DNA of 64,000 bases from Topomyia yanbarensis (Eukaryota; Arthropoda; Insecta; Diptera; Culicidae): the NCBI RefSeq assembly GCF_030247195.1, contig NC_080671.1, forward strand, positions 214,562,943-214,626,942, read 5' to 3'. Positions within the stretch are counted from its first letter, which is position 1; the number at the start of each line of letters is the position of its first letter. Positions 422 to 43,905 of this stretch are shown in pieces. Made by a program: the position numbers and the translations under genes. The notes below the pieces were generated by a model. That model did no database searches and was not told the DNA's origin. It saw only the letters and a program-made list of their open reading frames with translations.

Positions 422-601
422 GAATGCAAAGGCTTAGACAGGAGTAAGCTATGTCGTCGATGCGGCGAGGAGGGGCATAAAGAGCGGGGGTGCACTAAGG
501 CATATAAGTGCCTTATCTGCACCTCTAAGAAGCAAGCCCATAAACATGCTATGGGCGGACCTTCGTGTCCCTTCGGCGAGTTAAATAAGAAGAAGCCGTG
601 A
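422..601 (+). pseudogene. R1-type LINE ORF1, C-terminal zinc-knuckle end (5'-truncated)
   Basis: The frame is open from the truncation point to a TGA at 599-601. It encodes CRRCGEEGHKERGC, a CX2CX4HX4C knuckle, followed by a second cluster with CLIC, an HKH pair and a final C, then a lysine-rich end. Such paired knuckles at the end of ORF1 are typical of R1-clade nucleic-acid-binding ORF1 proteins. The stop overlaps the beginning of ORF2 (codon 598-600), the usual stop/start overlap in this clade. Everything upstream of this end of ORF1 is missing because of 5' truncation. Confidence 0.85.
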
Positions 602-3573
602 GAGTCACACAGCTAAATCTTAACCATTGTGCAGCAGCCCAACAGCTGCTGTGGCAGTCGGTCTCGGAGTCGAGGACAGATGTCGCCCTCTTATCAGACC
701 CGTACAGCATCCCTGCCGGCAACGGCAATTGGGTGTCGGACGGGTCTGGAATGGTGGCAATCTGTACAACGGGAAGGTTCCCGGTTCAAGAGGTAATACA
801 CCCCTCCGCCGAGGGTGTGGCGATTGCCAAGATCAATGGTGTGTTCTATTGCAGCTGCTACGCCCCACCAAGGTGGCCAATAGAACAGTTCTACCAGATG
901 ATCGACAGGCTCTCGTCGGACCTCGTGGGCCGGAAACCGGTAGTAATAGCGGGAGACTTCAACGCTTGGGCAGTGGAGTGGGGCAGCCGCTGTACAAATA
1001 GCAGGGGTCAAGCGCTAATGGAAGCGTTTGCGAAACTCGATACTGTGCTAGCTAATGATGGCTCCGCTAGTACATTCCGTAGAAACGGAGTGGAGGCGTG
1101 GATTGATTTGACCTTTGCCAGCCCGAGTCTGGCTCCAGGCATGGAATGGAGGGTAGACGAAGGCTACACCCATAGTGATCATTTAGCAATCCGCTTTAAG
1201 CTCAACTATGGTGTGCAGCATCCGAGGGCGGGAGATCCCTGTCAGGTACGCGGGTGGAAGTCCAATCACTTCGACAGCGAAGCTTTCACCGCGGCCCTGG
1301 GACTGGAGGCCAACACCGACAGTCTAAGCGGGGATGCGCTGGTAGCTGTTCTATCACGCGCGTGCGACGCCACTATGCCGAGAAAAACACTGCCAAGAAA
1401 CGGTAGATGCCCGGTATACTGGTGGAGTGCCGAGATTGCAGCTCTACGGTCAGTCTGTCTCAGAGCTAGACGTAGGATGCAAAGAGCTCGCACCGAGGAT
1501 GCAAGAGAGAACCGCCGTGAAGTGTTTCGAGCTGCGAAATTAGCCCTTAACAAGGCTATTAAAAGCAGCAAGAGAGCGTGTTTCGACAACCTGTGTGAGA
1601 GTGCCAACGCGAATCCGTGGGGTGACGCCTACCGGATTGTGATGGCCAAGACCAAAGGGGGCTCCTCACCCCCAGAACGGTCTCCGGACCGGTTGGCAAC
1701 GATTATCGAAGTACTCTTCCCGTCTCGAGCCACAAGCCCCTGGCCACCTGCACTACGAGACAGTGCGGGCACGGTCGAAATGGTGGCTCCAGTGACGAAC
1801 GAAGAACTACTCGCAGTGGCTAAATCCCTAGCAATGAATAAAGCTCCAGGGCCGGATGGAGTCCCGAACAACGCTCTCAAGGCAGCGATCATAGCGAACC
1901 CGAACATGTTCAGGCTAGCTATGCAGAGATGCCTTGACGAGTGCCGTTTCCCCGATAGATGGAAAAGGCAGAAACTGGTGCTGTTGCCGAAGCCCGGGAA
2001 GCCGCCAGGCGACCCATCGGCGTACAGACCAATCTGTCTGATAGACACGACTGGCAAACTGCTTGAGAGGATCATCCTCAACAGGCTCACCCCGTACGCG
2101 GAAGGTACGGACGGTCTGTCAAGCAACCAGTTTGGCTTTCGGAAGGGTAAGTCCACAGTGGACGCTCTCAACTCAGTGATAAATACTGCCGAGATAGCGA
2201 TCCAACGAAAAAGGCGAGGTATTCGATACTGTGCGTTAGTGACACTTGACGTGAAGAATGCATTCAACAGCGCAAGCTGGGATGCCATCGCGCTCTCGTT
2301 ACACCGGTTTAGCCTACCGGTGGGTCTGTACCGGATCCTGGAAAGTTACTTCCAAAACCGCGTACTGCTATACGAGACCGATGCCGGTCAGAAAAGGGTT
2401 CCGATTACCGCCGGAGTCCCGCAGGGCTCGATCCTAGGCCCGGTGCTATGGAACCTCATGTATGACGGGGTTCTGAGACTGAAGTTCCCTCCTGGGGTCA
2501 AGATCGTCGGCTTTGCCGACGACGTAACCTTGGAGGTCTACGGGGAGTCAATTCCTGAGGTAGAACTAACCGCAGAACACGCGATTAGCACGGTGGAGGA
2601 ATGGATGAGCGCGAGAGGCCTGGAGCTCGCTCATCATAAGACGGAGGTAGTTATCGTCAACAACCGCAAGTCGGCACAACATGCAGTTATCCATGTGGGA
2701 GAAGTCGCGATCACTTCACAGCGAAGTCTGAAGTCTCTCGGAGTCATTATAGACGACAAGCTGACCTTCGGCAGCCATGTCGACTATACGTGCAAGAGAG
2801 CGTCGACTGCTGTTGCGGCACTATCGAGAATGATGTCCAACAGCTCAAAGGTGTGCGCCAGTAGACGTAGGTTACTGGCAGGCGTTGCCGTATCTATCCT
2901 CAGGTACGGCGGCCCGTCATGGTCAAGAGCACTGAGGGTAACCAGTTACCTACAGAAACTGGAGAGCACCTACCGCGTGATGTGCCTCAGAGTGATATCT
3001 GCCTACCGCACGGTATCACACGATGCATCCTGCGTGATAGCGAGCATGATGCCAGTCGGGCTGGTCATTCGGGAAGATGAGGAGTGCTTTGAGCTACGTG
3101 GAAATAGGGGAGCCCGCGAGCGCACCAGGGTGACCTCGGTCGCCAGATGGCAGCGTGAGTGGGACAACTCCTCGAAAGGTAGGTGGACCCACCGGCTGAT
3201 ACCTAGCATATCGAGCTGGGTGGGAAGACCCCATGGGGAAGTTCACTTCCACCTGACACAATTCCTGTCAGGCCATGGCTGTTTCCGTCAGTACCTCCAC
3301 AGGTTCGGACACGCGGAGGTCCCAGTCTGCCCGGACTGCCCAGGTGTAGATGAAACTGCCGAGCACATACTGTTCGTATGTCATCGGTTCGACGTCGAAA
3401 GAAGAGCAATGCTTGACGTCTGTGGCTGGGACACAACCCCGGATACCCTTATCCAGCGGATGTGTCAAACGGTGGAGAAGTGGAACGCAGTCTCGGCTGC
3501 TACCATCCAGATTGCCAGTAGGCTACAGGTAATCTGGCGAACCGAGCAGCAGACGGCGGGCACGGCTAACTAG
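598..3573 (+). CDS. R1-type LINE ORF2: endonuclease / reverse transcriptase, 991 codons, no internal stop
   Basis: ORF2 makes the enzyme that nicks the target and copies the LINE RNA into it. An apurinic-like endonuclease covers about residues 1-205: QLNLNHCAAAQ at the start, AGDFNAWAVEWGS at 118-130 and SDHLAI near 193. The reverse transcriptase starts around the KAPGPDG box at 415, continues through SNQFGFRKGKST near 508 and AGVPQGSILGP near 606, and has the catalytic FADD at 639-642. A C-terminal zinc cluster CPDCPG...HILFVCH lies near 911-928. The first codon is GTG (598) where related elements have ATG, so initiation may be damaged even though the frame is intact. The R1 clade call rests on the endonuclease start, FADD and the C-terminal cluster. 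Confidence 0.93.
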   Translation: MRVTQLNLNHCAAAQQLLWQSVSESRTDVALLSDPYSIPAGNGNWVSDGSGMVAICTTGRFPVQEVIHPSAEGVAIAKINGVFYCSCYAPPRWPIEQFYQMIDRLSSDLVGRKPVVIAGDFNAWAVEWGSRCTNSRGQALMEAFAKLDTVLANDGSASTFRRNGVEAWIDLTFASPSLAPGMEWRVDEGYTHSDHLAIRFKLNYGVQHPRAGDPCQVRGWKSNHFDSEAFTAALGLEANTDSLSGDALVAVLSRACDATMPRKTLPRNGRCPVYWWSAEIAALRSVCLRARRRMQRARTEDARENRREVFRAAKLALNKAIKSSKRACFDNLCESANANPWGDAYRIVMAKTKGGSSPPERSPDRLATIIEVLFPSRATSPWPPALRDSAGTVEMVAPVTNEELLAVAKSLAMNKAPGPDGVPNNALKAAIIANPNMFRLAMQRCLDECRFPDRWKRQKLVLLPKPGKPPGDPSAYRPICLIDTTGKLLERIILNRLTPYAEGTDGLSSNQFGFRKGKSTVDALNSVINTAEIAIQRKRRGIRYCALVTLDVKNAFNSASWDAIALSLHRFSLPVGLYRILESYFQNRVLLYETDAGQKRVPITAGVPQGSILGPVLWNLMYDGVLRLKFPPGVKIVGFADDVTLEVYGESIPEVELTAEHAISTVEEWMSARGLELAHHKTEVVIVNNRKSAQHAVIHVGEVAITSQRSLKSLGVIIDDKLTFGSHVDYTCKRASTAVAALSRMMSNSSKVCASRRRLLAGVAVSILRYGGPSWSRALRVTSYLQKLESTYRVMCLRVISAYRTVSHDASCVIASMMPVGLVIREDEECFELRGNRGARERTRVTSVARWQREWDNSSKGRWTHRLIPSISSWVGRPHGEVHFHLTQFLSGHGCFRQYLHRFGHAEVPVCPDCPGVDETAEHILFVCHRFDVERRAMLDVCGWDTTPDTLIQRMCQTVEKWNAVSAATIQIASRLQVIWRTEQQTAGTAN

Positions 3574-4472
3574 TGATTGGTTAGTTGGAGCGAAAAAGGC
3601 CAAGCGCAAAATAAGAGAGTGAATGGTCTGTTCATGCCGAGGTAGGTTGGCGCAGCGAATGGCAACCGCGTAAGGGGTAAACCCAGCCACCCCGAAGCAA
3701 GACAGAAGAGTGAGTGTATAGGCGTATAAGTGGACTGCCTCATGCCAAGACGGGAGGGTCGTAGCGTAGTATGTTGGGACTTAGCTATCGATGCCTCATG
3801 GCGTGGCAGAGGAGTGAAAGGGTGAGCATCCAAGTCAGTCTCACACTGCATGTTAAGGGTGAGCATAAAAGTCAGCCTCACAGGTTGGTTGCAAGCAAGG
3901 AATGAAAAAGGTGAGCACAAAAGTCAGCCTCGCATGGTATGTCAGAAGTGGGGCCTAAGAAAAATGTCCCACATGGGATGCCAGAGGGAGTGACAAAGGT
4001 ACAATAGAGTGGCACGATTGAGAGTGAATCAGGTGATAGGGTGAGCACCCAAGTCAGCCTCACATGTATGGGTAGGGCGAGCACAAAAGTAAGCCTAGCA
4101 AGGAATGAGTAAGGTGAGCACACAAGTCAGCCTCGCATGGAACGTAAAAGGTGAGCACAAAAGTCAGCCTCATGTGGGAGTGTTTGAGAGCGAATCAAAG
4201 TGTGATTGAGAGAGCACCCAAGTAAGCCTCATACAGGATGTATGATCGCGTGAGTGAGAGTGAATGAGTACACTTAGTACAGCCATCCCCCCAGAAGTAA
4301 TACCGAGAGGTAGTTCCTGGGAGGAATGATGGCGGAGCCCAATGGAGTTTAGTCGGTATTAATGGCTGGTCACCATTCGAGCCCGACACGCCCCCAGTGC
4401 ACCCCGTGTGGTAGATTGGACCCTACCGTTAGCACGTGTACTGGGCTAGGACATAAAGGTCTTCTCCATTGT
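3574..4472 (+). repeat. LINE 3' UTR with ~8 degenerate copies of a short motif
   Basis: The 3' UTR contains irregularly spaced copies of the motif gtgagcacaaaagtcagcct, beginning near 3831, 3859, 3911, 4041, 4077, 4113, 4151 and 4211. Spacing runs from about 28 to 130 bp. Blocks of agtgaatgagt lie between them. No reading frame is conserved through the array, so it is read as noncoding 3' UTR structure. Confidence 0.75.
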
Positions 4473-4499
4473 AAAAAAAAAAAAAAAAAGAAACAACTA

Positions 4500-5363
4500 G
4501 TGGGAATGTTTGGAAAGGCAGGCTTCGAGTTGCACAAGTGGTGTTCAAATCGTAAAGAAGTGCTGGCTGATTTGTCGGAAGAGAAGCTGGAAAAGAAGGT
4601 GCTATTCAGCGATGAAGGTCGTACCAAAACTCTCGGGTTAACTTGGCAACCCAGCGAGGACGTTTTCAGTTTCGACGTATTGTCTTTTGCTTCCAACGAA
4701 CGAGTATCGACCAAACGCACAGTTCTGTCGGATATATCAAAATTATTTGACCCTCTAGGACTAGCAGGGCCAGTCGTTATGACTGGAAAACTAATTATGC
4801 AAGAACTATGGCAAACAAAACGGAAGTGGGACGAGCCACTTGAACCACAGTTGGAAAAATCGTTGAACGAGTATCGACGTCAGCTGCAGGAAATGAAAAC
4901 CATTCGAATAAGCAGGTGTGTGCTTCCTCTTCCAGATACAGTATTTGTCGAATTGGTGGGGTTCTGCGATGCATCACAAAAGGGTTACGGGGCATGTGTG
5001 TATTTAAGGTCTCGAAATACGCAAGGTCAAATTTCAATTCGTTTGTTGTGCTCCAAATCTCGTGTCGCACCCCTAAAGGCAAATCGAGCCACGATTCCGC
5101 GCCTAGAACTGTGTGGAGCACTTTTGCTCGCTCAATTAGTAGAAAGTGTCAAACGATCACTAGCAAACATCGACCGTGCTTTACTTTGGTCCGACTCTAC
5201 TATCGCGCTCAGTTGGATCAACACTTGTCCCAGTAAGCTGGATGTTTTCGTTTCGAATCGTGTTGCAAAGATCCAGAGATTGACCAGTTCTGGAGATTGG
5301 TCTCACGTCGGCACGCACGATAATCCAGCGGATTATTATGCCAATCGAACTAGGGTCATCTAA
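4500..5363 (+). pseudogene. BEL/Pao RT connection and RNase H
   Basis: The frame resumes after the LINE with VGMFGKAGFELHKWCSN, the expected end of the RT palm. KRTVLSDISKLFDPLGL, the hallmark connection motif of Pao elements, follows near 4710-4765. RNase H motifs follow: VGFCDASQKGYGACVY (first Asp), LELCGALLLAQL (Glu) and LLWSDSTIALSWI (Asp), then HVGTHDNPAD. In the family the last motif runs on into the linker to integrase; here it changes frame at about 5330-5340 and stops at 5361-5363. Confidence 0.9.
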
Positions 5364-6621
5364 ACTATGGTGGCAAGGAGCACAATTCCTGCGGGACGGG
5401 AATAGTACTTGGCCAAAGGGAGTCCAATTGATTGCCCCAGAAGAATTGCCTGAACTGATCACAGTAACTGCCATGTCGGTGGTAGTGGAGAAGCTCCAAC
5501 TGTTCGACAACTGCAGCAAGTACAATACCATGCTTCGGGTCATCGCGCGCATCAAGCGCTTGTTCCAGAATCGTCGTCGTGGTCCACTTAATCAGTATCA
5601 AGGAGAACTAACAGCGGAAGAGATCCGACATGCAAGGCTCACCATCGTTCGATTCGTCCAGGAGGAGAGCTTTCCGGAAGCATTCTCCCAACTACGAAAG
5701 CAAGTAAAGTTGAAGAACCATTCGCTAATGCCACTCTCTCCATTCGTAGACAATCATGGCGTGCTTAGGGTGGGAGGTCGCCTGTCGAAGTCGTCATGCT
5801 CATTCGACACGAAACACCAGATGATCCTACCGAAGAATCATCCCTTCACAACCGCAGTCATCCGATCTGTGCACGAGTCCAATATGCACGCCGGGATTCA
5901 AATCACGTTAACAGCAACTAGAAGAGAGTTTTGGATAATCAGAGGTAGAAGCACGGTGAAGAAAATTCTGAAGGATTGTGTTGTCTGCTTCAAGAGCAAT
6001 CCCCGCCCTATTCAGCAGTATATGGGGGATTTGCCGGCTTGCCGCTTGGAAGGCCAATATCCGTTTTACCGAATCGGAATCGATCTTTGTGGACCAGTGT
6101 ACTTGAAGCAGCGAAACAAACGATCGACCGCAGCCTTTTTAGCGTCGTTCGATCGTTTCACCGGCTGCCGTGGAAGACCGCTTACAGTTTGGACCGATAA
6201 CGGTACGAACTTCGTCGGAGCTGCTAATCTGTTGTCTGAATGGGATAAATTCTTCGCTTGTGCCGACATCCAAGACGGTATTCGACGAACCTACAGTAAC
6301 GAGATCGAGTGGCGCTTCAACCCCCCAGAGGCACCGCATTTCGGCGGTATCTGGGAATCGAATATCCGTCAAACAAAGATTTTGTTGGTTAAATACACGG
6401 CAGGGGCATCGCTGAGTTACGAAGAAATGTCGACCGTTCTGTGTCGAATCGAAGCTATTTTGAATTCGAGGCCATTGTCGGACGATCCAGAGGACCCCAT
6501 TGTCGGACGATCCAGAGGACTTCGAACCATTAACTCCGGGTCATTTTCTAATCTTCAGACCCCTAAATGCTGTTGCTCGTCCCGAAGTTTCGGAAAATCG
6601 CAAACACCCAAGGCAACGTAA
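5338..6621 (+). pseudogene. BEL/Pao integrase with a gap in the catalytic core
   Basis: After the frameshift the linker SSKLWWQGAQFLRD is recognisable. The HHCC zinc domain follows (HESNMHAG ... DCVVCF), then the integrase core with GIDLCGPVY (first Asp) and VWTDNGTNFVG (second Asp), and WESNIRQ carrying the likely Glu. Between LKQRNKRSTAAFLASF and RFTGCRGRP some two dozen residues normally present, including the VHLE-type strand, are absent. The core fold cannot be complete. The reading then leaves frame at a 25 bp duplication (6472-6521). Confidence 0.87.
6472..6521 (+). repeat. 25 bp tandem duplication causing a frameshift
   Basis: The unit beginning ccattgtcggacgatccaga occurs twice (6472-6496, 6497-6521) with one mismatch. 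Twenty-five is not a multiple of three, so the integrase frame is lost and the rest of the protein continues in another frame. Confidence 0.95.
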
Positions 6622-6952
6622 CGAGCACATTAACGTGATAATACAACACTTCTGGAATGGTTGGCAATCCGAATATATATCATCGCTACAAGAGAGGTAC
6701 AAATGGCACAAAAAGGTTAATGTCGAAGTTGGGCAACTCGCATTGATTAAAAAGGACAACATGCCTGTTCAAAAATGGTTACTCGGCCATATCGTCGAAG
6801 TCGTTCCAGGTTCCAGAGGCGTAGTGAGAGTTGCTGATGTAAAAACACAGAAAGGAATTTGTCGCCGTCCAGTATCGAAGTTGTGTTTTCTTCCCATAGC
6901 TCCAGAACAGTGTATCGAAAGGCAAGCCTTTCAACGGCGGGAGGATGATTGA
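6497..6952 (+). pseudogene. BEL/Pao polyprotein C-terminal domain (DUF5641-like)
   Basis: From the second repeat unit the frame encodes FEPLTPGHFLI, then HFWNGWQSEYISSLQERYKW, and VGQLALIKKDNMPVQKWLLG. This order is characteristic of the C-terminal domain of BEL/Pao polyproteins. It ends RPVSKLCFLPIA plus a short tail at the TGA 6950-6952, just before the probable LTR. Confidence 0.9.
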
Positions 6953-7328: not shown

Positions 7329-8880
7329 CTGCGTGTTCGTACTCATCACCCTGTAATTCCGGAACCGGAAGTCGGGTCCATTAGAAATTCAATAGCAGCC
7401 TATGGGAACGTTGCACCTTTCATTTGAGACTAAGTTTGTCAAAATTGGTTCAGCCATCTCTGAGAAAAATGAGTGACATATTTGGTCACATACACACACA
7501 TACGCACATACACACACATTCATACATACACACACATTCATATATACACACATACATACACACAGACATTTGCCGAACTCGACGAACTGAATCGAATGGT
7601 ACATGTCACTCGGCCCTCCGGGCCTCCGTTAACAAGTCGGTTTTCAGAGCAATTGCAATACCTTTCTATTGAGAAAGGCAAAAAGGTGCGAAATCGGCAG
7701 TCCCAAAAAGTCGATTTTTATAAAAAAAAAATTTTTCGAGATAACATAAAATCTCGACGTTTCATGCATTTTAAAGATGTTTGGCATCAAAAATACGAAT
7801 TCGATTTCTGAAATTTCATGAGGTCCCCCTTTGAAAAAAAAAATTGAGTTCCGGCTTATATGGGAATTTCATATGTGACCGGACGATTTAGTCTATATTT
7901 CCGGACCCATATAAGCGATCCGTACGAAATTTTATAGACATCTATGAGGATATTATAGCTATCATTTGGGACTAAGTTTGTGAAAATCGGCCCAACCATT
8001 TCCGGGAAACTGATGTGAGTTCGTAAATTTTGAAAGATGACCGCTTTTCCCGGGCACTTCCGGAACCGTCTATGGTAGTCAATGTAGTCAACGAAAGTTT
8101 GGTTGGCCGTCGGTGAGCTAGAACAGCAAATTTAAGTTGTTTGAGAGACATTTTAGCGAATTTTTTACCTTTTTTGCTTTCATCGGAGTATCGGTTTGAA
8201 TCACAATTTGCTATGTGATCGCACGCCACAACCTGTAACTCCGGAACCGGAAGTTGGATCGGGATGAAATTAAATAGCTATTTATGGGGACGCAATACCT
8301 TTCATTTGAGGCCAAGCTTAGTCGAATCGGTTTAGCCATCTCCGAGAAACCGATGTGACTGTTATTCTGAATTTAGATACTTCCGCCGGGGCTTCCGGAA
8401 CCGATGATGGTGGCCAATGTGGCCAAATAGACTTTGAATGGATGTTAGTGACCTAATACTACAAATCGAAGCAGTTGTGGTCATATTTTGGAAAAATTTT
8501 CACCTTTATACATTCATTGCAGAATTTATTAAAATCAACATTTTCTGCGTGTTCGTACTCATCACCCTGTAATTCCGGAACCGGAAGTCGGATCCATTAG
8601 AAATTCAATAGCAGTCTATGGGAACGTTGCACCTTTCATTTGAGACTAAGTTTGTCAAAATCGGTTCAGCCATCTCTGAGAAAAATGAGTGACATTTTTG
8701 GTCACATACACACATACGCACATACACACACATACATACATACACACATACATACACACACAGACATTTGCCGAACTCGACGAACCAAATCGAATGGTAC
8801 ATGTCACTCGGCCCTCCGGGCCTCCGTTAAAAAGTCGGTTTTCAGAGCAATTGCAATACCTTTCTATTGAGAAAGGCAAA
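7329..8880 (+). repeat. Array of degenerate ~300 bp repeat modules with CA/TACA microsatellites
   Basis: Two closely similar modules (7329-7680 and 8546-8880) begin ctgcgtgttcgtactcatca, pass through ccggaaccggaagtcgg, tttgagactaagtttgtcaa and a CA/TACA microsatellite, and end with ctttctattgagaaaggcaa. Between them lie two more diverged partial modules (about 7850-8030 and 8228-8370) with the same ccggaaccggaag / gccatctccgagaaa landmarks. From memory such modules are frequent in mosquito genomes. I see no coding capacity; ORFs over the CA tracts are artefacts. Confidence 0.75.
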
Positions 8881-10142
<1,262 letters not shown>

Positions 10143-35794: not shown

Positions 35795-36154
35795 ACGCAG
35801 TCACACCTTTTCAAATCAACGACGTGGTTAACGAAAACGGCCGCAATTTGGATATTTGCTTTGTTAGTGCCCAGGACGTTGCTCCAACTATCTCTATCGC
35901 ACCAGCTCCATTGGTGAAAACTGTACCTTATCACAAATCTCTTGTTGTCTCGCTTACTTCACTTACTCGATAGCAATGATTTTGATCAAGCAGCACAGAC
36001 CTTCACTCATATCATGGCGTATGCCATCGATAGATTCGTCCCGAAGAAAGTAAACCGGAATGATAGAAAATTCCCACGGCAAAGTCGAGTTACCGCAACT
36101 TAAAACAGTAAAGCGAGCCGCCTTGAGGAAATTCACAAAATACCGAACTCTGTC
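35795..36154 (+). pseudogene. Jockey-type LINE ORF2, endonuclease end and linker
   Basis: The frame resumes with AVTPFQINDVVNENG and LDICFVSAQDVAPTI, then VKTVPYHKSLVVSLTS, where the conserved H lies near the end of the endonuclease. FVPKKVNRND follows, then decayed linker sequence, up to the BEL insertion at 36155. The reading in the last 100 bp needs frame changes. Confidence 0.8.
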
Positions 36155-36949
36155 TATCGTTCCGCCGAACGATCTTACGCCGCAGAAGGGGGTGCTGGGT
36201 CTAGTTAGAAGCGTCCTGCGGTACAAGCCACTTCTAATTCTAGACTAAGTATAGTTTGTGGCACCTGCGTTACAAATACCACACGCTATAGCTTAATAAG
36301 CCGGGAATTCCTCGTCCAGTTAGTATCGTTCTGCGTAACAATCCAATACTAATTTTGGTCGTAAGACAATTTGCTTCCCCGCTTGCGTTACAAACATGAA
36401 AGTAATTTGACTTTGGATTTAACAAGGTGGAAAACCAACGAAGAGCTCCAGGGTCTGGACACGAAGTAAAGGATTTTCGCCTGAGTGGAGTGGTACTTTC
36501 GATTGCTCGATTTCAACTTGATTTTATTATACAATTTTTTGGTTTATATACCTACTTTCCTAAAGCTAGCTATTTACAAATAATCGATTTTTGAATCGAT
36601 TTTATTTGGATTTGTTTTGGTACAGAATGTTAACAACGAATATTATTGTCAACTCTGTAAAAATGTTTTATTATCCTAGCCACCGCGCGAAGGCAAATAT
36701 CGATATAATTACCGTCTTCGAATGCGCTGTGACCGGCAGTGGCACCGAGAATGCCGACGAAGCATATATGACCCCTGCGTGAGCGCGCATTGACTTTTCG
36801 TTGGGCGCACTCGAATGTAATTTGATTTTCCTTCTGCCTCTTTAGGTCAGAACGAACTGTTCTATGTTGCGGCGGTTTGTTTTGATTCTGCCGAACGGTT
36901 TTTTTTGTGCTCGCTGCGAACAGCTGTTTGTGATTTTGCGTCGGCGACA
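36155..36949 (-). repeat. 3' LTR of the BEL provirus (795 bp)
   Basis: On the minus strand the LTR begins TGTCGCCGACGC and ends GAACGATA. Against the other LTR, without its insertion, I count about seven substitutions and one 2 bp run-length difference by eye, roughly 1%. Confidence 0.93.
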
Positions 36950-36950
36950 T

Positions 36951-36964
36951 ATTGCCCCCCGTAA
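36951..36964 (-). promoter_or_regulatory. Candidate polypurine tract of the BEL provirus
   Basis: The minus strand reads acggggggcaat immediately before the 3' LTR start. A purine run at this place primes plus-strand DNA synthesis in LTR retroelements. Confidence 0.65.
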
Positions 36965-37187
36965 GTCTATCCCATAGATCTTACAAAAAACTAGCCGACG
37001 CGCCGATGGTCATCTTTGCTTGTCGAGATTCTCGATGTTTATCTGATTATAAAGGTTCATTTAATATTTGCTTTTGTTACCTACTAATGATTTATGTTTT
37101 GGAGCCTAATTCAATTTTTGATAAATGATAATGTTCCTATCTTTTAAGTTATTTTTAATATTTGTTTAAGTTATTAATGCACTTGCT

Positions 37188-39863
37188 TTAAATTTGTGTA
37201 ACACTATTTGCAGCTGTTGTTCGTGGAATTATTCTCGGTGGTCGTCTTGGAAGTGGAGTTGGTCTGCTCGATGTTCTAATGGTGTAACGTCGACTGCCTT
37301 TCTTATAGTAAAGGGCGCTGATTATCGTGGCCACAACAAGTACTGATGATACCGCTGCTACTATGACCGGAACATGATGATTTATCGCCTTTGTTTCAGG
37401 ATCGGTATGATAGGATGAATGGGTTGCAGCTATCGGTTCAGGTTCTGTTATTTCCCAAGTGTCTTCTGACGCATTGAAATTTGTTGTTTTCCATTGAGGT
37501 ATTTGATCGTGGCGTTTGAAGTATATTTTTTGTTGCTTTGAGGTTCCGCCGATGCTAGCGTACGTTACGCTGTGCTTGGTTCGTAGTTCACAGCCAGGAT
37601 CTAATTTTACAACCGCTATGGTGTATGAGGTGAAATTCAATTCCTTATTGCAGAGTATCGTAATTGTATTTGGATCTTTTGCGTAGTATAGCAGTGTGTT
37701 CGGTTGTGACAATATGATTACTTCCGCGTAATCGGTGGGTAGGCTATCGAAAGTTGTGATATTGCAGTTTCTTACGGGATGCTTGTGAAATATTGCTGGT
37801 GGCACGCATGACATTTCCATCTGTATTGTTGGCTTGAAGGAGAGGAAGTGTGTTTCGTTTAGTTTCCTTGCCTCATTAGAGGGATAGAAATACTGGTTGT
37901 GCTGATTGATGGCGATTCTCGGTTGATCAACATGAATTTTTGTTCTGTTTTCAAAGTCTGGTATAGCTATAACCTTGAAATTTTCGAATGATTCTCTTAG
38001 TTTCACAATAGATCTCATCGCGATTTGATACGAATCATTCTTTATTTTGAGTTTGTAATGGGTTGCAAACTCATCTTCGGGTATGTAATGATTTTCAGGA
38101 AGTCGTAGGTTCGCTTGTTGGATGAATTCGTTTCTTTCTTCTATGGTGACGGGTATATGTTTCAATTTTCTGTGACGTGTGAGAATACTCTCGATCAGTT
38201 GTTTAGCCATCATTATTGTGTCCATCAGATGGTTGGCTAAAGTTTCTGCATAGTTCATCGCGAACTGTTTGTTCAAAAGTTTGATTCCATCTAATGCGTG
38301 GTGAATCCGTTGTTCAAATTGATTGTTTTGTTGCAGGGTTCTTTCCCTTAGCTGATTCATGCTATGTGTGACGTCATGAATTTTTTGTTCTTCGTTCATT
38401 CGGATAGCCTCGATTTGGTCTGTCAGATCATCGCCTCCGAATAGTATGTCTTTAAGGAATCCAAAAATTCCCTTTCCTCTTTTTACTCGGGCTGGTTCCA
38501 AAATTTCCTGCTTCGCGGCGTAACACTGTTGTTCAATCGAGGTAGCCAAGTCGACGAGTGTTGGATTTTTTATTTTCTGCTTTAGTCCATTTATAGCGTC
38601 TTCGATGTTTCTGTGTATCTTGTCAATGAGTTTTACATCGTCGGTGGGAGATATGTTTGTAGTAATTTGTGTGTCCCAAATTCCGGTTTGTATTAAATAG
38701 GTAGCTTCGTGATTGAATAAAAGTCCCGTATTTGGTACGGGTTCGAGGGTCATACTGGACGTTGTATTTAAAGGTAGTACTGCTGCTGTAGTGACGAGCA
38801 TTTTTGCCCACATGTTTGGCCTACCTCGGATAGTTTTCTTTTTCGGTTTGGTTGGATGAGCGGCTTTGTGCTTTTCTGCTAGTTGTTTTACTAGCTCTAT
38901 GTCGATTTTTTGCCGCTTACCCCAATCTGTCATATTTGCCTTTGCATATGAGCTACTGTATTGCGGGAAGACCTCTTTTCGTTTTGGTGATATTTCCTGT
39001 ATGTGACCGGTGAATACCGTATCTGCCTTTACGTCTAATTTGGCCAATTTTACAGTTGGCCTAACTAATTTATAGTTTTCAGTGCGAACGACCGCAGACC
39101 TTGTTTGGCCATCCTGCGCCTTCCTTACTTCGGTAATAATTCCCTTATGAAACTTCCCTTTCCGTTGTTCGTCTGGAAAAACAACGACATCATCAGGCTG
39201 GAGTGGTTCTGCGTTCTGTTTCCATCTTTCTCGTTTGTTCAGTTTAGGAAGGTATTCTGCACTCCACCGATCCAAAAATTTAGTAGTTGCCATTTGAGCC
39301 TTTTTCCAGTGTTCTCTTGTTGCCTCGGCTCGAAATGTGTCGTCGAGTGAAGGATACGTTCCTCCTGCGAATCCAATCATTTCTTCTCGTAGTGAGACTT
39401 GCTCCTCTACTATACAGGAATATATTTCTTCTTGATGTCGAGAGTGGGTCCTTCCGTAAATGACCCATCCGATCGGTGTTTTAGCGGCAACCGGACCGAC
39501 CTTGCTTGCTCTCTGTTTTGTTACTGTTAAAAGTCGGGAATGATCAAGTCCAATAAGTAATGTCGGCTCAGCATTCTCGTATCCTTGTATAGGAAGGTTT
39601 TTAAGATGGTTGTAATTTTCATAAAGATCCTTGTAGTCGAGTGTCTGTCGTGGTAAGGATAATTTATTTACTGTGCGTACACTTTCCATTAGGTATCGAA
39701 TTTTGTTGCTGCCCGATATTTTGAAGCATACGGTTTGGCTTTCGTTATCTTCTTGTACGGAGTCATTTGTCCATTTTATGCATAATGGTGATACTGGCCC
39801 TTGCAATCCTAAATCTTTGGCCACGTCGTCGAGGATTAGACTGTTCGATGAGCCGTGATCCAA
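37188..39863 (-). CDS. Fused protease / pol C-terminus / envelope-like glycoprotein, 891 codons open
   Basis: Residues 1-165: aspartic protease region with the DHGSS active-site motif at 2-6 and IGWVIYGR at 131-138. Around 165 the frame passes directly to the pol C-terminal domain (FLDRWSAEYLPKL at 197-209, DDVVVF at 224-229). From about 345 an envelope-like protein follows: a hydrophobic stretch after MWAKM (351-366) that could be a signal sequence, a furin-type RVKR at 459-462, then a Gly/Phe-rich stretch (464-477) like the fusion peptide of baculovirus F and errantivirus Env proteins. A heptad-like helical region (about 480-570), Asn-X-Ser/Thr sites, a transmembrane segment (829-852) and a short basic, proline-rich tail follow. 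The frame continues upstream of the ATG to a TAA at 39969-39971. Function of the protein is inferred from layout. Confidence 0.88.
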   Translation of the reverse strand: MDHGSSNSLILDDVAKDLGLQGPVSPLCIKWTNDSVQEDNESQTVCFKISGSNKIRYLMESVRTVNKLSLPRQTLDYKDLYENYNHLKNLPIQGYENAEPTLLIGLDHSRLLTVTKQRASKVGPVAAKTPIGWVIYGRTHSRHQEEIYSCIVEEQVSLREEMIGFAGGTYPSLDDTFRAEATREHWKKAQMATTKFLDRWSAEYLPKLNKRERWKQNAEPLQPDDVVVFPDEQRKGKFHKGIITEVRKAQDGQTRSAVVRTENYKLVRPTVKLAKLDVKADTVFTGHIQEISPKRKEVFPQYSSSYAKANMTDWGKRQKIDIELVKQLAEKHKAAHPTKPKKKTIRGRPNMWAKMLVTTAAVLPLNTTSSMTLEPVPNTGLLFNHEATYLIQTGIWDTQITTNISPTDDVKLIDKIHRNIEDAINGLKQKIKNPTLVDLATSIEQQCYAAKQEILEPARVKRGKGIFGFLKDILFGGDDLTDQIEAIRMNEEQKIHDVTHSMNQLRERTLQQNNQFEQRIHHALDGIKLLNKQFAMNYAETLANHLMDTIMMAKQLIESILTRHRKLKHIPVTIEERNEFIQQANLRLPENHYIPEDEFATHYKLKIKNDSYQIAMRSIVKLRESFENFKVIAIPDFENRTKIHVDQPRIAINQHNQYFYPSNEARKLNETHFLSFKPTIQMEMSCVPPAIFHKHPVRNCNITTFDSLPTDYAEVIILSQPNTLLYYAKDPNTITILCNKELNFTSYTIAVVKLDPGCELRTKHSVTYASIGGTSKQQKIYFKRHDQIPQWKTTNFNASEDTWEITEPEPIAATHSSYHTDPETKAINHHVPVIVAAVSSVLVVATIISALYYKKGSRRYTIRTSSRPTPLPRRPPRIIPRTTAANSVTQI

Positions 39864-39968
39864 AAATGCGAAGGTTTCTAATTGTCTTCCTTGCGCATAA
39901 AGTGTAACCGGCAGTATTTGGTAGTTGACTTTATTTCTTTTGGTAGTGTGTATGTTAGTGCGTACAGC

Positions 39969-40358
39969 TTAATCTTCTTGTTCCTTCGAGGTGGACGATG
40001 TTGGAGCTTGTGCATCTATTTCTTTCACTTCCTTTTTATCTGAATTCTTCTTGTTGTCTTTTGAATGTCCTGAAGATTTCTTAATTTTTTGTTTTGTTTC
40101 CTCCTTTTGGGAGGCTGGTTTTTCATCATTTGTTTTTGGTTTGACGTGAAGAAAGGTGTGATGATGTGCTGTACATCCTTCTGTTCTACAGTTTGGTCTC
40201 ATTTGGCAGTTTCTAAAGGAGTGTCCTTGGCGTAAACAGTTAAAGCACATGCGTTTCTCTAGTACCAGTTCTCGTCTTTTTTCCACACTCATCTTTTTAA
40301 AGACTGGGCATGCTACTATCCAATGTTGTTGGTTACAACAGGAACATTTCGCTTGGGA
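39969..40358 (-). pseudogene. BEL Gag, zinc-knuckle end
   Basis: Same frame as the protease/envelope ORF. A CX2CX4HX4C-like cluster starts just after the TGA (CSCCNQQHWIVAC), then SVEKRRELVLEKRMCFNCLRQGHSFRNC, the classic BEL second knuckle, and HHHTFLH. The tail is lysine-rich and low complexity, ending EQED at TAA 39969-39971. The TGA at 40359-40361 separates it from the Gag body without a frame change. Confidence 0.88.
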
Positions 40359-41051
40359 TCAGGGTGTTTTTTCGGCGTGCATATTGATTCTTGATTGGCG
40401 CTCATTTTTCGGGTTTTCCTTTTCAGATTGACACACCTTTTGTGCAATAAGAAGTGTTGCTCTTTGCTGTTGAGGTTTCAAAAACTCGTGTAATTCCTTT
40501 AGTGTGAGTTTTTGCCGTGGTCGTCCTTCTTGCGGAATCATTGCTTCTGCTTCCTTGTCCGCCCATTGTTCTCTTAAGTTCAGTGGTAAGCGGCAAACAA
40601 GTTCAGCCATCTGCAACGGATTAGTTAAATAATCCTCGCACTGTATCATGGACATGTTGGATACCAAATTTCCGAGAGTCACTACGAAATCCACCATGCT
40701 TTGAGGGTATTCCATGCGTGGGTTCCGTAACTTTGCCAAATCCTTCCATAGTTCGTTGTATATAGCCAACGGTTGTCCGTAAATACTATCCAGAGTTTCT
40801 ACTACATGTTTCTCGTTTCCTGGATCCATCAGCAAGGCACTTACGTGTAACTTTGCTGCTTTGCCTAGACTTGCCATAAGTCTGTTTATGTTATCGGTAT
40901 CGCTGAATTGACCTTCTCGTTTGCTTTGTTCGTAAAGCCGTTTGAAATTTAGCCATTCCTTGTAATTTCCGTTGAAAGCTGGGAGGGGTGTTGCTGTTTG
41001 CCTCCTCAGTAAGTTTGTAATTTCATCCGGCAATTTGATTGTCGGAGCCAT
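40359..41051 (-). pseudogene. BEL Gag body (DUF1759-like)
   Basis: 230 codons from MAPTIKLPDEI to a TGA. LPAFNGNYKEWLNFKRLYEQ and VVETLDSIYGQPLAIYNELW are the hallmarks of BEL/Pao Gag, which builds the particle. Upstream, the same frame runs on through a TAA (41055-41057) to QMESQKLRDEAF and a further TAA (41166-41168), so the ATG at 41051 may be internal to the ancestral protein. Confidence 0.9.
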
Positions 41052-41160
41052 TTGTTATCCCGCTTCGGGGTCCACTTTTACTTGGTGCATTTTAGTTGCC
41101 ATCTCAATCATGGCTTTTTGAAATGCCTCATCACGTAATTTTTGGCTTTCCATTTGTGCC

Positions 41161-41460
41161 TCAAATTAGCGTCTTAGCAGCTCTACAGTGTCTGCTGGTC
41201 CGCGTTCTTTGGACACACTCCTGGTAGTCTTCTTCTTTTGATCCTCCAGCTCCTTCCTTAGTTGCTGGAGCTCCATTATTTCCTCTTTGCACTTTGGGCA
41301 GTGCCAGTGGAGTGGAGGGTCTTTTCTCAAGTTTGGTGCAGGTCATGTGGAACCAGTTCCAACACTTTGAGCACTCGACCATCCATTCGTCCGCGCTGTC
41401 CTTGTCCTTGCACAGGCGGCAGTTCCCATTCGGGTTGTGCGCGTATCCTCCAGATGCCAT
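41161..41460 (-). pseudogene. PHD-finger N-terminus of the BEL Gag, frameshifted
   Basis: The ORF starts MASGGYAHNPNGNCRLCKD and shows CRLC...DEWMVECSKCWNWFHMTC, the first six ligands and central His of a PHD-type zinc finger. The last ligand pair (HWHCPKC) lies in the next frame at about 41295-41315, so a 1 bp shift has separated it; after the shift a coiled-coil-like stretch leads in frame towards Gag. PHD fingers bind histone tails in cellular proteins; in a Gag this could help chromatin targeting, which is inference. Confidence 0.82.
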
Positions 41461-41807
41461 CCTTTAGATCCGCTTTCTCTTTCGGCTTGTTTTAGGTTCA
41501 CTAGTGATATATCGCACGGTGTGATATATATTGTGATATTTTATTCAAGCACTGTTTGTTTTCACCGGATCTGCTATTGGCTGCGGATACGCCTTATTAA
41601 CGATTTTGTAAGTGACGCGTATTGCAATGCGTATTACTGTCCGTTATAAGCTACGGACACGCTGTGTTTCTAGCGTTTTTCCACCACAGTTTGTAGGTGT
41701 TCGCTTAATGTTTATGCCCTTTTTCACTACCGTAGCTTGGTCAGTGTAGGACTTAGTATTTTTTCTTTACTTCGTGACTTCTGTGGCGAGAATTATGTGA
41801 GGATAAA

Positions 41808-41825
41808 TCCTCTCTGGAGCCACCA
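41808..41825 (-). promoter_or_regulatory. tRNA primer-binding site of the BEL provirus
   Basis: The plus strand reads tcctctctggagccacca, which has the form of a tRNA 3' end with CCA. It is 2 nt from the LTR, the usual place for the primer that starts reverse transcription. I do not assign the tRNA species. Confidence 0.8.
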
Positions 41826-41827
41826 TA

Positions 41828-42937
41828 TATCGTTCCGCCGAACGATCTCACGCCGCAGAAGGGGGTGCTGGGTCTAGTTAGAAGCGTCCTGCGGTACAAG
41901 CCACTTCTAATTCTAGACTAAGTATAGTTTGTGGCACCTGCGTTACAAATACCACACGCTATAGCTTAATAAGCCGGGAATTCCTCGTCCAGTTAGTATC
42001 GTTCTGCGTAACAAACCAATACTAATTTTGGTCGTAAGACAATTTGCTTCCCTGCTTGCGTTACAAACAAGGAAGTAATTTGACTTTGTATTTAACAAGG
42101 TGGAAAACCAACGAAGAGCTCCAGGGTCTGGACACGAAGTAAAGGATTTTCGCCTGAGTGGAGTGGTACTTTCGATTGCTCGATTTCAACTTGATTTTAT
42201 TATACAATTTTTTGGTTTATATACCTACTTTCCTAAAGCTAGCTATTTACAAATAATCGCTATGCTATATTTCACCCTAAGGAGGAAAATTTGGTAAAAA
42301 AACCAAAATTTTTTCTCGCTAGGGTATAGCATAGTGCTTTCGCATAGGCCTGCTAAGCCAAGACAAGTTTCGGTTTCACTGTGTCTCATCGGCATAAACA
42401 GAACTTCTGCTCGAACGGGACATCACGTCTGATCAGTCGTTCGATTGAAACACAAAGTGTGTTTTAGTTTTAAGGGATTTGCGTTAAGCCGGCGCTAATC
42501 TATTCCGACAATAAGTTAGTGTTGGTTTCTGATGAGGCGAAGCCGAAACGCAACACAGTATACAAATAATCGATTTTTGAATCGATTTTATTTGGATTTG
42601 TTTTGGTACAGAATGTTAACAACGAATATTATTGTCAACTCTGCAAAAATGTTTTATTATCCTAGCCACCGCGCGAAGGCAAATATCGATATAATTACCG
42701 TCTTCGAATGCGCTGTGACCGGCAGTGGCACCGAGAATGCCGACGAAGCATATATGACCCCTGCGTGAGCGCGCATTGACTTTTCGTTGGGCGCACTCGA
42801 ATGTAATTTGATTTTCCTTCTGCCTCTTTAGGTCAGAACGAACTGTTCTATGTTGCGGCGGTTTGTTTTGATTCTGCCGAACGGTTTTTTTTTTGTGCTC
42901 GCTGCGAACAGCTGTTTGTGATTTTGCGTCGGCGACA
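41828..42937 (-). repeat. 5' LTR of the BEL provirus (1110 bp including a 301 bp insertion)
   Basis: Matches the 3' LTR over its whole length except for an insertion at 42260-42560 with its 12 bp target duplication. Subtracting these gives 797 bp, against 795 in the other LTR. Confidence 0.93.
42260..42560. mobile_element. SINE-like 301 bp insertion in the LTR, with a 75 bp terminal hairpin
   Basis: The 12-mer tacaaataatcg flanks the insert (42248-42259 and 42561-42572); the other LTR has it once. 42260-42334 folds on itself: ctatgctata pairs with tatagcatag and the inner arms gaaaattt...aaattttttc also pair. No coding capacity and no clear poly(A). No tRNA-type B box was found, so the class is uncertain. 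Confidence 0.82.
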
Positions 42938-43905
42938 CTGTCACTTTGGAACCACTATGTGAGGCTGAGGCGCCTCGTCTCTTTTCCATTAAGATTGCCA
43001 GTGTTTTTAAAGCAGAAGTATTAACTCCCGAGCATGTTTTCGCCGCCGCCAGAAATGTCCCTTTGCAAACACAGACTTTTGGTCAAATGGACGTGGATGA
43101 TACGATGATTACGAGAGCAGCCCGCCAACTGAAGTCAACTCACAAACCAAGACCAGATTGAATACCGTCCGTTTTTTAAAGCATCATATCGCCTACTTGC
43201 TGTCTCCACTCCGTCACCTTTTCCAACTGTCCTTATCCAAGGGGGGTTTCCCTTCGTGCTGGAAATATGCGCATATGTTTCCTGTATATAAAAAAGAGAA
43301 AAGAAATAGACATCGAAAACTACCGCGGCATCACATCACTATGTGCTGTTTCAAAACTGTTTGAACTTGTCGTCATGGAGCCTCTTTTCACCCACTGCAA
43401 GCAATACCTCAGCGATGACCAACACGGTTTCATGCCCGGACGGTCGACCACTACGAATTTGCTATGTCTTACATCATACATCACTGCGCGCATGGCGGAA
43501 CGAAATCAAACGAACGTTATTTACACTGATCTATCGGCAGCATTCGATAAGATTAATATGTATATGCAGATTCGTTCGATGGCTGATGCCCATTTCCTGC
43601 AAAATCAACTGGACAGTTTCGCAGCTTCGTGCGATTTAAATCCAATAATCATCAACCCGAGTAAATGTTCGGTGATTTCCTTCACATGGAAAAAGCAACC
43701 GATTCGTTTCAAATATACCTTGGGATGTTGAAATCGATCGTGTCACACACGTTAAAGATCTTGGAGTCATACTGGATAACCAACTCACTTTCAAGCAACA
43801 CGTCTCGTTCATCGTCGGTAAAGCATCACAAACACTGGGCCTCATCATGCGTATAGCTTCACTTCACCGACGTATATTGCCTAAAGTCGTTATACTGCGC
43901 ACATT
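42938..43905 (+). pseudogene. Jockey-type LINE ORF2, reverse transcriptase part, internally deleted
   Basis: Continuation of the LINE broken at 36154. ARQLKSTHKPRPD (RT box 1, with Gly replaced by a stop), SKGGFPSCWKYAHMFPVYKK, IENYRGITSLCAVSKLFE, DQHGFMPGRSTTTNLL and YTDLSAAFDKI (first catalytic Asp) follow in three frames. After the last, sequence jumps to the thumb-side motif LNPSKC-like NPSKCSVISF, so the block with the FADD pair is deleted near 43554. KDLGVILDNQLTFKQHV follows in another frame. It decays before 43905. Confidence 0.88.

What the first reader, a model, noticed from the sequence alone, without database searches (positions are those of the whole stretch)
37188..41460. Envelope-bearing BEL/Pao provirus lacking reverse transcriptase and integrase in one fused frame
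The 891-codon frame runs from aspartic protease straight into the pol C-terminal domain and then a full envelope-like protein with furin-type site, fusion-peptide-like stretch and transmembrane anchor. The ~700 residues of RT, RNase H and integrase expected between them are absent, yet the junction near residue 165 keeps frame. LTRs, target duplication, primer site and polypurine tract all look functional. This is the layout of a nonautonomous element moved in trans, or a step towards envelope capture.
Basis: partly seen in the sequence, partly recalled or inferred. Interest (0 to 1): 0.88.

Follow-up and report, generated by a model that had tools for sequence, protein, structure and literature searches.

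The report
Polymerase-less mosquito envelope retroelement
This is a shortened copy of a mosquito jumping element that lost its own copying enzymes, shares that exact loss with one older copy, and so was most likely moved by intact sister elements in the same genome; the result is well supported but fairly ordinary.

Summary
The element is real: minus strand, window 36155-42937, 795-bp LTRs (7/795 mismatches), 5-bp target duplication CTGTC, 18-nt primer site. The host assembly is Topomyia yanbarensis (contig length shared with P0001's contig). Protease runs in frame into DUF5641 and envelope; 965 codons (2895 bp) are missing, not ~700, with 3-bp microhomology TGA. The "ORF" lacks a usable start; gag carries four premature stops and an indel absent from 6 of 6 relatives compared.

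The junction is not unique: of 40 matches to 121 bp across it, 2 span it (this copy and an older one at C2:212.18 Mb) and 36 stop at its 5' edge. Relatives with 96-97% identical LTRs are abundant; 22 of 82 envelope matches lie in frames of at least 2382 codons. This copy inserted well after the junction arose, so movement in trans is best supported. Envelope capture is not: the envelope belongs to the intact family, and protease-to-envelope changes look neutral here (7 synonymous, 26 nonsynonymous) but constrained in the family (30, 24; p 0.002), though envelope alone is too small to decide. New member of a known kind.

The parts
36150..36154 (.). target-site duplication CTGTC, left copy
36155..36949 (-). 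3' LTR, 795 bp
   Evidence: 40 of 40 scored genome matches (of 174 candidates) cover all 795 bases, the 39 others at 96-97% identity
36955..36960 (-). G-run of the presumed polypurine tract (GGGGGG, then CAATA to the LTR)
37191..39968 (-). open frame of 926 codons: linker, protease, DUF5641, envelope; first ATG is its 94th codon
39378..39863 (-). aspartic protease region (residues 1-162 of the listed ORF)
   Evidence: 90% identical to P0001 residues 535-696
39377..39379 (-). deletion junction, 3-bp microhomology TGA; 2895 bp (RT, RNase H, integrase) absent here
39036..39311 (-). DUF5641 domain (PF18701)
   Evidence: 92% identical to P0002
37191..38813 (-). envelope-like protein; RVKR site at 38478-38489, TM about 37311-37367
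39969..41460 (-). gag (PHD finger, DUF1759, weak CCHC knuckle), broken by premature stops with codon ends at 41168, 41057, 40361, 39971 and by an indel at 41310
41808..41825 (-). primer binding site, 18 nt, complementary to the 3' end (with CCA) of host tRNA-Ile(AAT)
41828..42937 (-). 5' LTR, 1110 bp including later insert
42260..42560 (.). 301-bp later insert in the 5' LTR, flanked by TACAAATAATCG (42248-42259 and 42561-42572)
42938..42942 (.). target-site duplication CTGTC, right copy

Best explanation
A non-autonomous internal-deletion derivative of a young, envelope-bearing BEL/Pao (Belpaoviridae-type) element family of the mosquito Topomyia yanbarensis. In an ancestor, 2895 bp coding for RT, RNase H and integrase were lost in one step between two TGA triplets, most simply by template switching during reverse transcription (inferred). 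LTRs, primer site, leader and G-tract stayed, so its RNA could still be packaged, copied and integrated by proteins from intact sister elements (inferred). Shown: two separate insertions 2.4 Mb apart share the exact junction; sisters with an uninterrupted polymerase region, 96-97% identical LTRs and the same primer site and G-tract exist; this copy integrated with a target duplication well after the lineages split. Since then it has decayed.
For: The junction joins the same bases in the window and in L002 (C2:212.18 Mb); the 3,024 bp fetched before L002's 5' LTR have no match in the window at E 1e-10, so it is not a copied segment. 57 protease rows (fused rows apart): 52 pair with a DUF5641 row, 44 at 3.34-3.38 kb (46 after allowing for two partial hits), 6 shorter, 5 unpaired. 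10 of 10 loci read at the 5' edge run on past the junction into other sequence. LTR pairs of 2 of 2 dated parents are identical, 0/794. Window LTRs differ by 7/795, L002's by about 26/783 counted from overlapping pieces, the two copies by 59/1403 in gag-protease. 26 window-only changes in 2028 sites against 8.9 expected since insertion, P 0.004. Primer site and G-tract kept.
Against: Point substitutions do not group the two deleted copies: 2 sites join window+L002, against 3 and 5 for the other pairings, so their kinship rests on the junction itself. L002 is rearranged (further gag and env deletions, duplicated 3' end, last bases of its 3' LTR missing) and its target duplication could not be read. 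It lacks the two window stops that could be compared. Only two junction copies among scored matches, a poor yield for a mobile form. No RNA or mobilisation data.
Confidence: 0.83

Rival explanations
1. Post-insertion deletion: a full-length element inserted here and later lost the polymerase by local deletion; the L002 junction is an independent coincidence.
For: Internal deletions are common in this family (6 of 52 paired rows have short spacing, after correction for two partial hits); substitutions do not group the window copy with L002.
Against: Same breakpoints to the base at both loci; 20,451 three-base matches exist between just 901 and 1101 bp of the two edge regions of one parental copy, so a repeat hit is improbable unless there is a hot spot. 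Whether there is one was not tested.
Confidence: 0.1
2. Envelope capture: the fused protease-DUF5641-envelope frame is kept by the host or element for an envelope function.
For: 926 codons without a stop while gag has four stops; chance that all four fall in gag is 0.02. For the envelope alone the contrast with the intact family is not significant (3 synonymous and 11 nonsynonymous against 13 and 14, p 0.18).
Against: No ATG at the start of the frame; pooled protease-to-envelope window changes are 26 nonsynonymous to 7 synonymous, as neutral (p 0.69), unlike the intact family (p 5e-6); the envelope is ordinary for the family.
Confidence: 0.04
3. Spliced RNA retro-copy: the missing piece is an intron used to make envelope mRNA, reverse transcribed after splicing.
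For: One clean in-frame gap shared by two copies would fit a fixed splice event.
Against: At none of the four possible alignments of the breakpoints does the removed piece begin GT and end AG (edges ..AAATGAGGAAATAC.. and ..TTTTTGATTGG..).
Confidence: 0.02
4. Assembly error.
For: Repeat family with near-identical copies.
Against: Two loci 2.4 Mb apart, 4.2% different, share the junction; the window copy has substitutions of its own on both sides of it (8 and 11 in the two regions next to it).
Confidence: 0.01

Closest known systems
Roo (BEL/Pao, Drosophila)
   Same: gag, pol and env in a single open frame (7083 nt; passages of PMC3087523); intact T. yanbarensis relatives have frames of about 2389 codons holding protease, DUF5641 and envelope
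   Different: the window copy lacks the polymerase; kinship of the envelopes was not tested
Anakin elements (mosquito Pao elements with chuvirus-type glycoprotein)
   Same: mosquito BEL/Pao with captured envelope; defective copies with LTRs common (50 of 263 in Table 1; passages of PMC7642597)
   Different: the envelope here was not compared with chuvirus glycoproteins; it has no Pfam or PDB match
TRIMs and other internal-deletion derivatives of LTR elements
   Same: non-autonomous, derived by internal deletion, LTRs shared with a putative autonomous partner (passages of PMC4717578)
   Different: this one keeps protease, DUF5641 and envelope; it is 6.8 kb, not miniature
Insect endogenous retroviruses with Env-F (gypsy group)
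   Same: furin-type site, fusion-peptide-like stretch, TM in the same order (passages of PMC12992720)
   Different: Metaviridae with env as a third, spliced ORF; here BEL/Pao with env in the pol frame; no sequence match found

Membership tests
BEL/Pao (Belpaoviridae) | LTRs 0.2-1.2 kb, genome 4.2-10 kb (PMC8742986, whole text) | tested here: met
   LTR 795 bp, element 6783 bp; one relative spans 9359 bp from LTR to LTR
BEL/Pao (Belpaoviridae) | Pao-type domains: DUF1759 gag, Pao polymerase, DUF5641 at pol end (domain set recalled) | tested here: met
   DUF1759 and DUF5641 in the window; Peptidase_A17 (Pao) in P0001 and P0002; absent from the window copy; no RT tree was built
BEL/Pao (Belpaoviridae) | 18-nt primer site complementary to a host tRNA | tested here: met
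   perfect 18-nt match, but to tRNA-Ile(AAT), whereas the ICTV profile names tRNA-Arg or tRNA-Gly
BEL/Pao (Belpaoviridae) | polypurine tract of about 10 nt before the 3' LTR | tested here: inconclusive
   GGGGGG then CAATA; short, but the same in 28 of 29 relatives looked at
Non-autonomous LTR element | lacks polymerase genes but keeps LTRs, primer site and polypurine tract | tested here: met
Non-autonomous LTR element | same defective form present at more than one insertion site | tested here: met
   2 of 40 matches (112 candidates, 40 scored) span the junction
Non-autonomous LTR element | mobilised by helper proteins | not testable with these tools
   inferred from timing only
F-type (baculovirus F / Env-F) envelope | sequence homology to Env-F / Baculo_F | tested here: inconclusive
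   architecture fits but no Pfam match for four 31-32% relatives, only a sub-threshold DUF6479 match for this envelope, and no meaningful PDB match; single-sequence model too poor, pLDDT 39.5

The most novel reading that the evidence does not exclude
The deletion ancestor was a specialised parasite of its own family: a Gag-protease-DUF5641-Env polyprotein (2389 minus 965 codons) that could still make particles and envelope but borrowed polymerase, lasting long enough to leave copies at least twice, in the manner of a defective interfering retroelement.
Probability: 0.15. Interest if true: 0.5.

Novelty: new member of a known kind. Interest (0 to 1): 0.3.

Why it matters
It documents, with a base-exact shared junction and dated insertions, that an envelope-bearing BEL/Pao element without polymerase was probably copied in a mosquito genome that holds many intact sisters. 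T. yanbarensis, with 22 envelope-holding frames of at least 2382 codons and identical LTR pairs in 2 of 2 tested, looks a good natural system for asking whether envelope-bearing BEL/Pao elements are still mobile. The window copy itself is an ordinary relic.

Tried and rejected
Single-sequence structure model of the envelope: pLDDT 39.5, unusable, so no fold search was run. A fold with the envelope relatives from the genome was not tried because the tool's stated list of accepted sources does not name loci of the genome search. Viral-contig scans with the protease-DUF5641 region, the envelope and the alignment A1: 1, 6 and 59 stretches matched a pattern, none was confirmed as a relative. Protein search with 310 residues across the junction (lengths 170-542) found only an Anopheles DUF5641 fragment; with residues 1-300 (lengths 490-1559) 5 proteins, none covering more than 55% of the query; with residues 340-891 only P0002. 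Full polyproteins above 1559 residues were outside these searches. I first thought that four stops against 0.86 expected since insertion (P 0.012-0.021) proved lesions older than the insertion; L002 lacks the two stops that could be checked, so they are not shared lesions, and the branch count is the better argument. I first thought that no stop in 926 codons meant selection; searches do not bear that out. Against a simple neutral story: in the gag piece compared (40018-40778) the window branch has 6 synonymous, 4 nonsynonymous and 1 stop change, fewer nonsynonymous than neutral (p 0.02). With gag added, window 13/30 against family 37/31, p 0.018; envelope alone p 0.18. Paper searches: one search listed 3 papers naming this mosquito, none about retroelements by title; some searches were on related subjects and one search gave nothing. 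The Iris/Kanga paper that I recall as a precedent for envelope domestication is not held and is not used. The 301-bp insert could not be searched in the genome.
Full report
What is there. The element lies on the minus strand, 36155-42937 (6783 bp). Its flanks look like the halves of a decayed LINE (by eye; no family search); joined, they give an 89-residue open run through the site. LTRs are 795 bp (3') and 1110 bp (5'), differing by 7 of 795 aligned bases (K2P 0.0089), a 2-base run-length change and a later insert. The insert (42260-42560) is flanked by a 12-bp duplication. CTGTC stands on both sides; the flanks of two parental copies also fit 5-bp duplications.

Genes. Gag (PHD finger, DUF1759, weak CCHC match) is 95-97% identical to the T. 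yanbarensis protein P0001 in the two pieces compared but broken: four premature stops in frame and an indel at 41310, absent from 6 of 6 relatives compared. The next frame, 926 codons without stop, holds protease, DUF5641 and envelope; its first ATG is codon 94, and TTG at 39863 is only the lister's start. The envelope has an RVKR site at residues 459-462, a glycine-rich stretch behind it, eight NxS/T sites from residue 346 on, and one strong TM near residue 833.

The junction. P0001 runs through protease into polymerase; P0002 runs from polymerase through integrase and DUF5641 into the envelope. In the genome (1.168 Gb; contig C3 has the same length as P0001's contig), 10 of 10 loci read at the 5' edge have GAAGAAATGAGGAAATAC (six, four, among them the C2:436.87 Mb relative), and 9 of 9 matches at the 3' edge have TTTTTGATTGGATGC (one has a T fewer before it; one further fetched region, L020, gave no match). 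The window reads GAAGAAATGATTGGATTC, L002 GAAGAAATGATTGGATGT. The shared TGA is the microhomology; 2895 bp, 965 codons, are gone in frame (positions in the copy at C2:187.14 Mb). No alignment of the breakpoints gives GT-AG ends, so it is not a retro-copied GT-AG splice.

Other copies. A protein search of the whole genome gave 125 matches (4687 candidates, 124 scored): two span the junction. A 121-bp DNA search gave 40 (112 candidates, 40 scored): 2 span, 36 stop at the 5' edge, 2 begin at the 3' edge. Of 57 protease rows (two of them pieces of one locus), 52 pair with a DUF5641 row, 44 at full spacing; the 8 other values include 2 that are full once partial hits are allowed for; 5 are unpaired. 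Dropped before this count: the two fused rows and 13 rows at 36-47% identity (from the table). Of 82 envelope matches, 22 lie in a frame of at least 2382 codons with no stop in the match. LTR search: 40 of 40 scored matches (174 candidates) cover all 795 bases, the 39 others at 96-97%.

Timing. Window versus L002: 59/1403; window versus six parents 61-65 per 1398-1404; parents among themselves 1-11. Own LTRs: window 7/795; L002 about 26/783, counted from overlapping pieces; 2 of 2 parents 0/794. On 2028 four-way sites the tree is a star: window-only 26, L002-only 32, C2:436.87-only 38, parents-only 38, shared pairs 2, 3 and 5, other 4. The 26 window-only changes exceed the 8.9 expected since insertion (P 0.004). 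So the window lineage was separate from L002 before it inserted, and both carry the junction: the deleted form most likely existed first and was then copied and integrated at least once without its own polymerase. The weak point: substitutions do not group window and L002, so the argument rests on the improbability of hitting the same bases twice.

Selection. In protease-DUF5641-envelope, window-branch changes are 7 synonymous and 26 nonsynonymous (plus one stop), as neutral (p 0.69); parents' branch 30 and 24 (p 5e-6 against neutral); Fisher p 0.0019. L002 (12, 32) and C2:436.87 (13, 27) also look relaxed. Limits: envelope alone 3/11 against 13/14, p 0.18; the gag piece compared has 6/4 on the window branch, fewer nonsynonymous than neutral (p 0.02); all regions 13/30 against 37/31, p 0.018. 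The open envelope frame is thus best read as luck and youth, although all four stops falling in gag has a chance of 0.02.

Signals kept. The 18 bases from 41825 downward match the 3' end plus CCA of tRNA-Ile(AAT) genes of this genome: the 15-base core has 134 places; of 28 fetched, 5 are tRNA-Ile(AAT) genes by ARAGORN, and 4 of 4 given to Rfam are tRNAs. The same site follows the 5' LTR in 2 of 2 parents. The ICTV profile names tRNA-Arg or tRNA-Gly for this family, a small departure. The 22 bases before the 3' LTR are identical in window, L002 and 28 of 29 other copies looked at.

Verdict. A non-autonomous, most likely trans-mobilised deletion derivative of an active-looking envelope-bearing BEL/Pao family. 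Envelope-bearing BEL/Pao elements, single-frame gag-pol-env and defective copies with LTRs are known. It is a new member of a known kind, of modest interest.

Noticed in passing
41808-41825 and parents L071, L072: Primer site matches tRNA-Ile(AAT), not the tRNA-Arg or tRNA-Gly that the ICTV profile gives for Belpaoviridae.
   Followed up: yes
42260-42560: 301-bp insert with a 12-bp target duplication and a hairpin-like start (by eye), inside the 5' LTR; probably a short mobile element.
   Followed up: partly
L010 (C2:212181800-212185600): The 3' end of the second deleted copy is duplicated, with sequence between that is related to window 7329-8882.
   Followed up: partly
L074 (C3:295.23 Mb), L075 (C2:256.38 Mb): Two further pol-deleted relatives with about 490 and 430 bp left between protease and DUF5641: other internal deletions of the same family.
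   Followed up: partly
41161-41460: The gag of this family begins with a PHD finger (also in P0001 and P0003), unusual for a gag gene as far as I recall.
   Followed up: no
4362-6952: Remains of another BEL/Pao-like polymerase in several frames (by eye).
   Followed up: no
598-3573: 991-codon frame that looks like a non-LTR retrotransposon endonuclease-RT (by eye).
   Followed up: no
C2:214524398-214525552 (outside the window): An envelope relative at 32% identity lies about 38 kb before the window starts; more at 30-37% elsewhere, one in a frame of 2130 codons.
   Followed up: no
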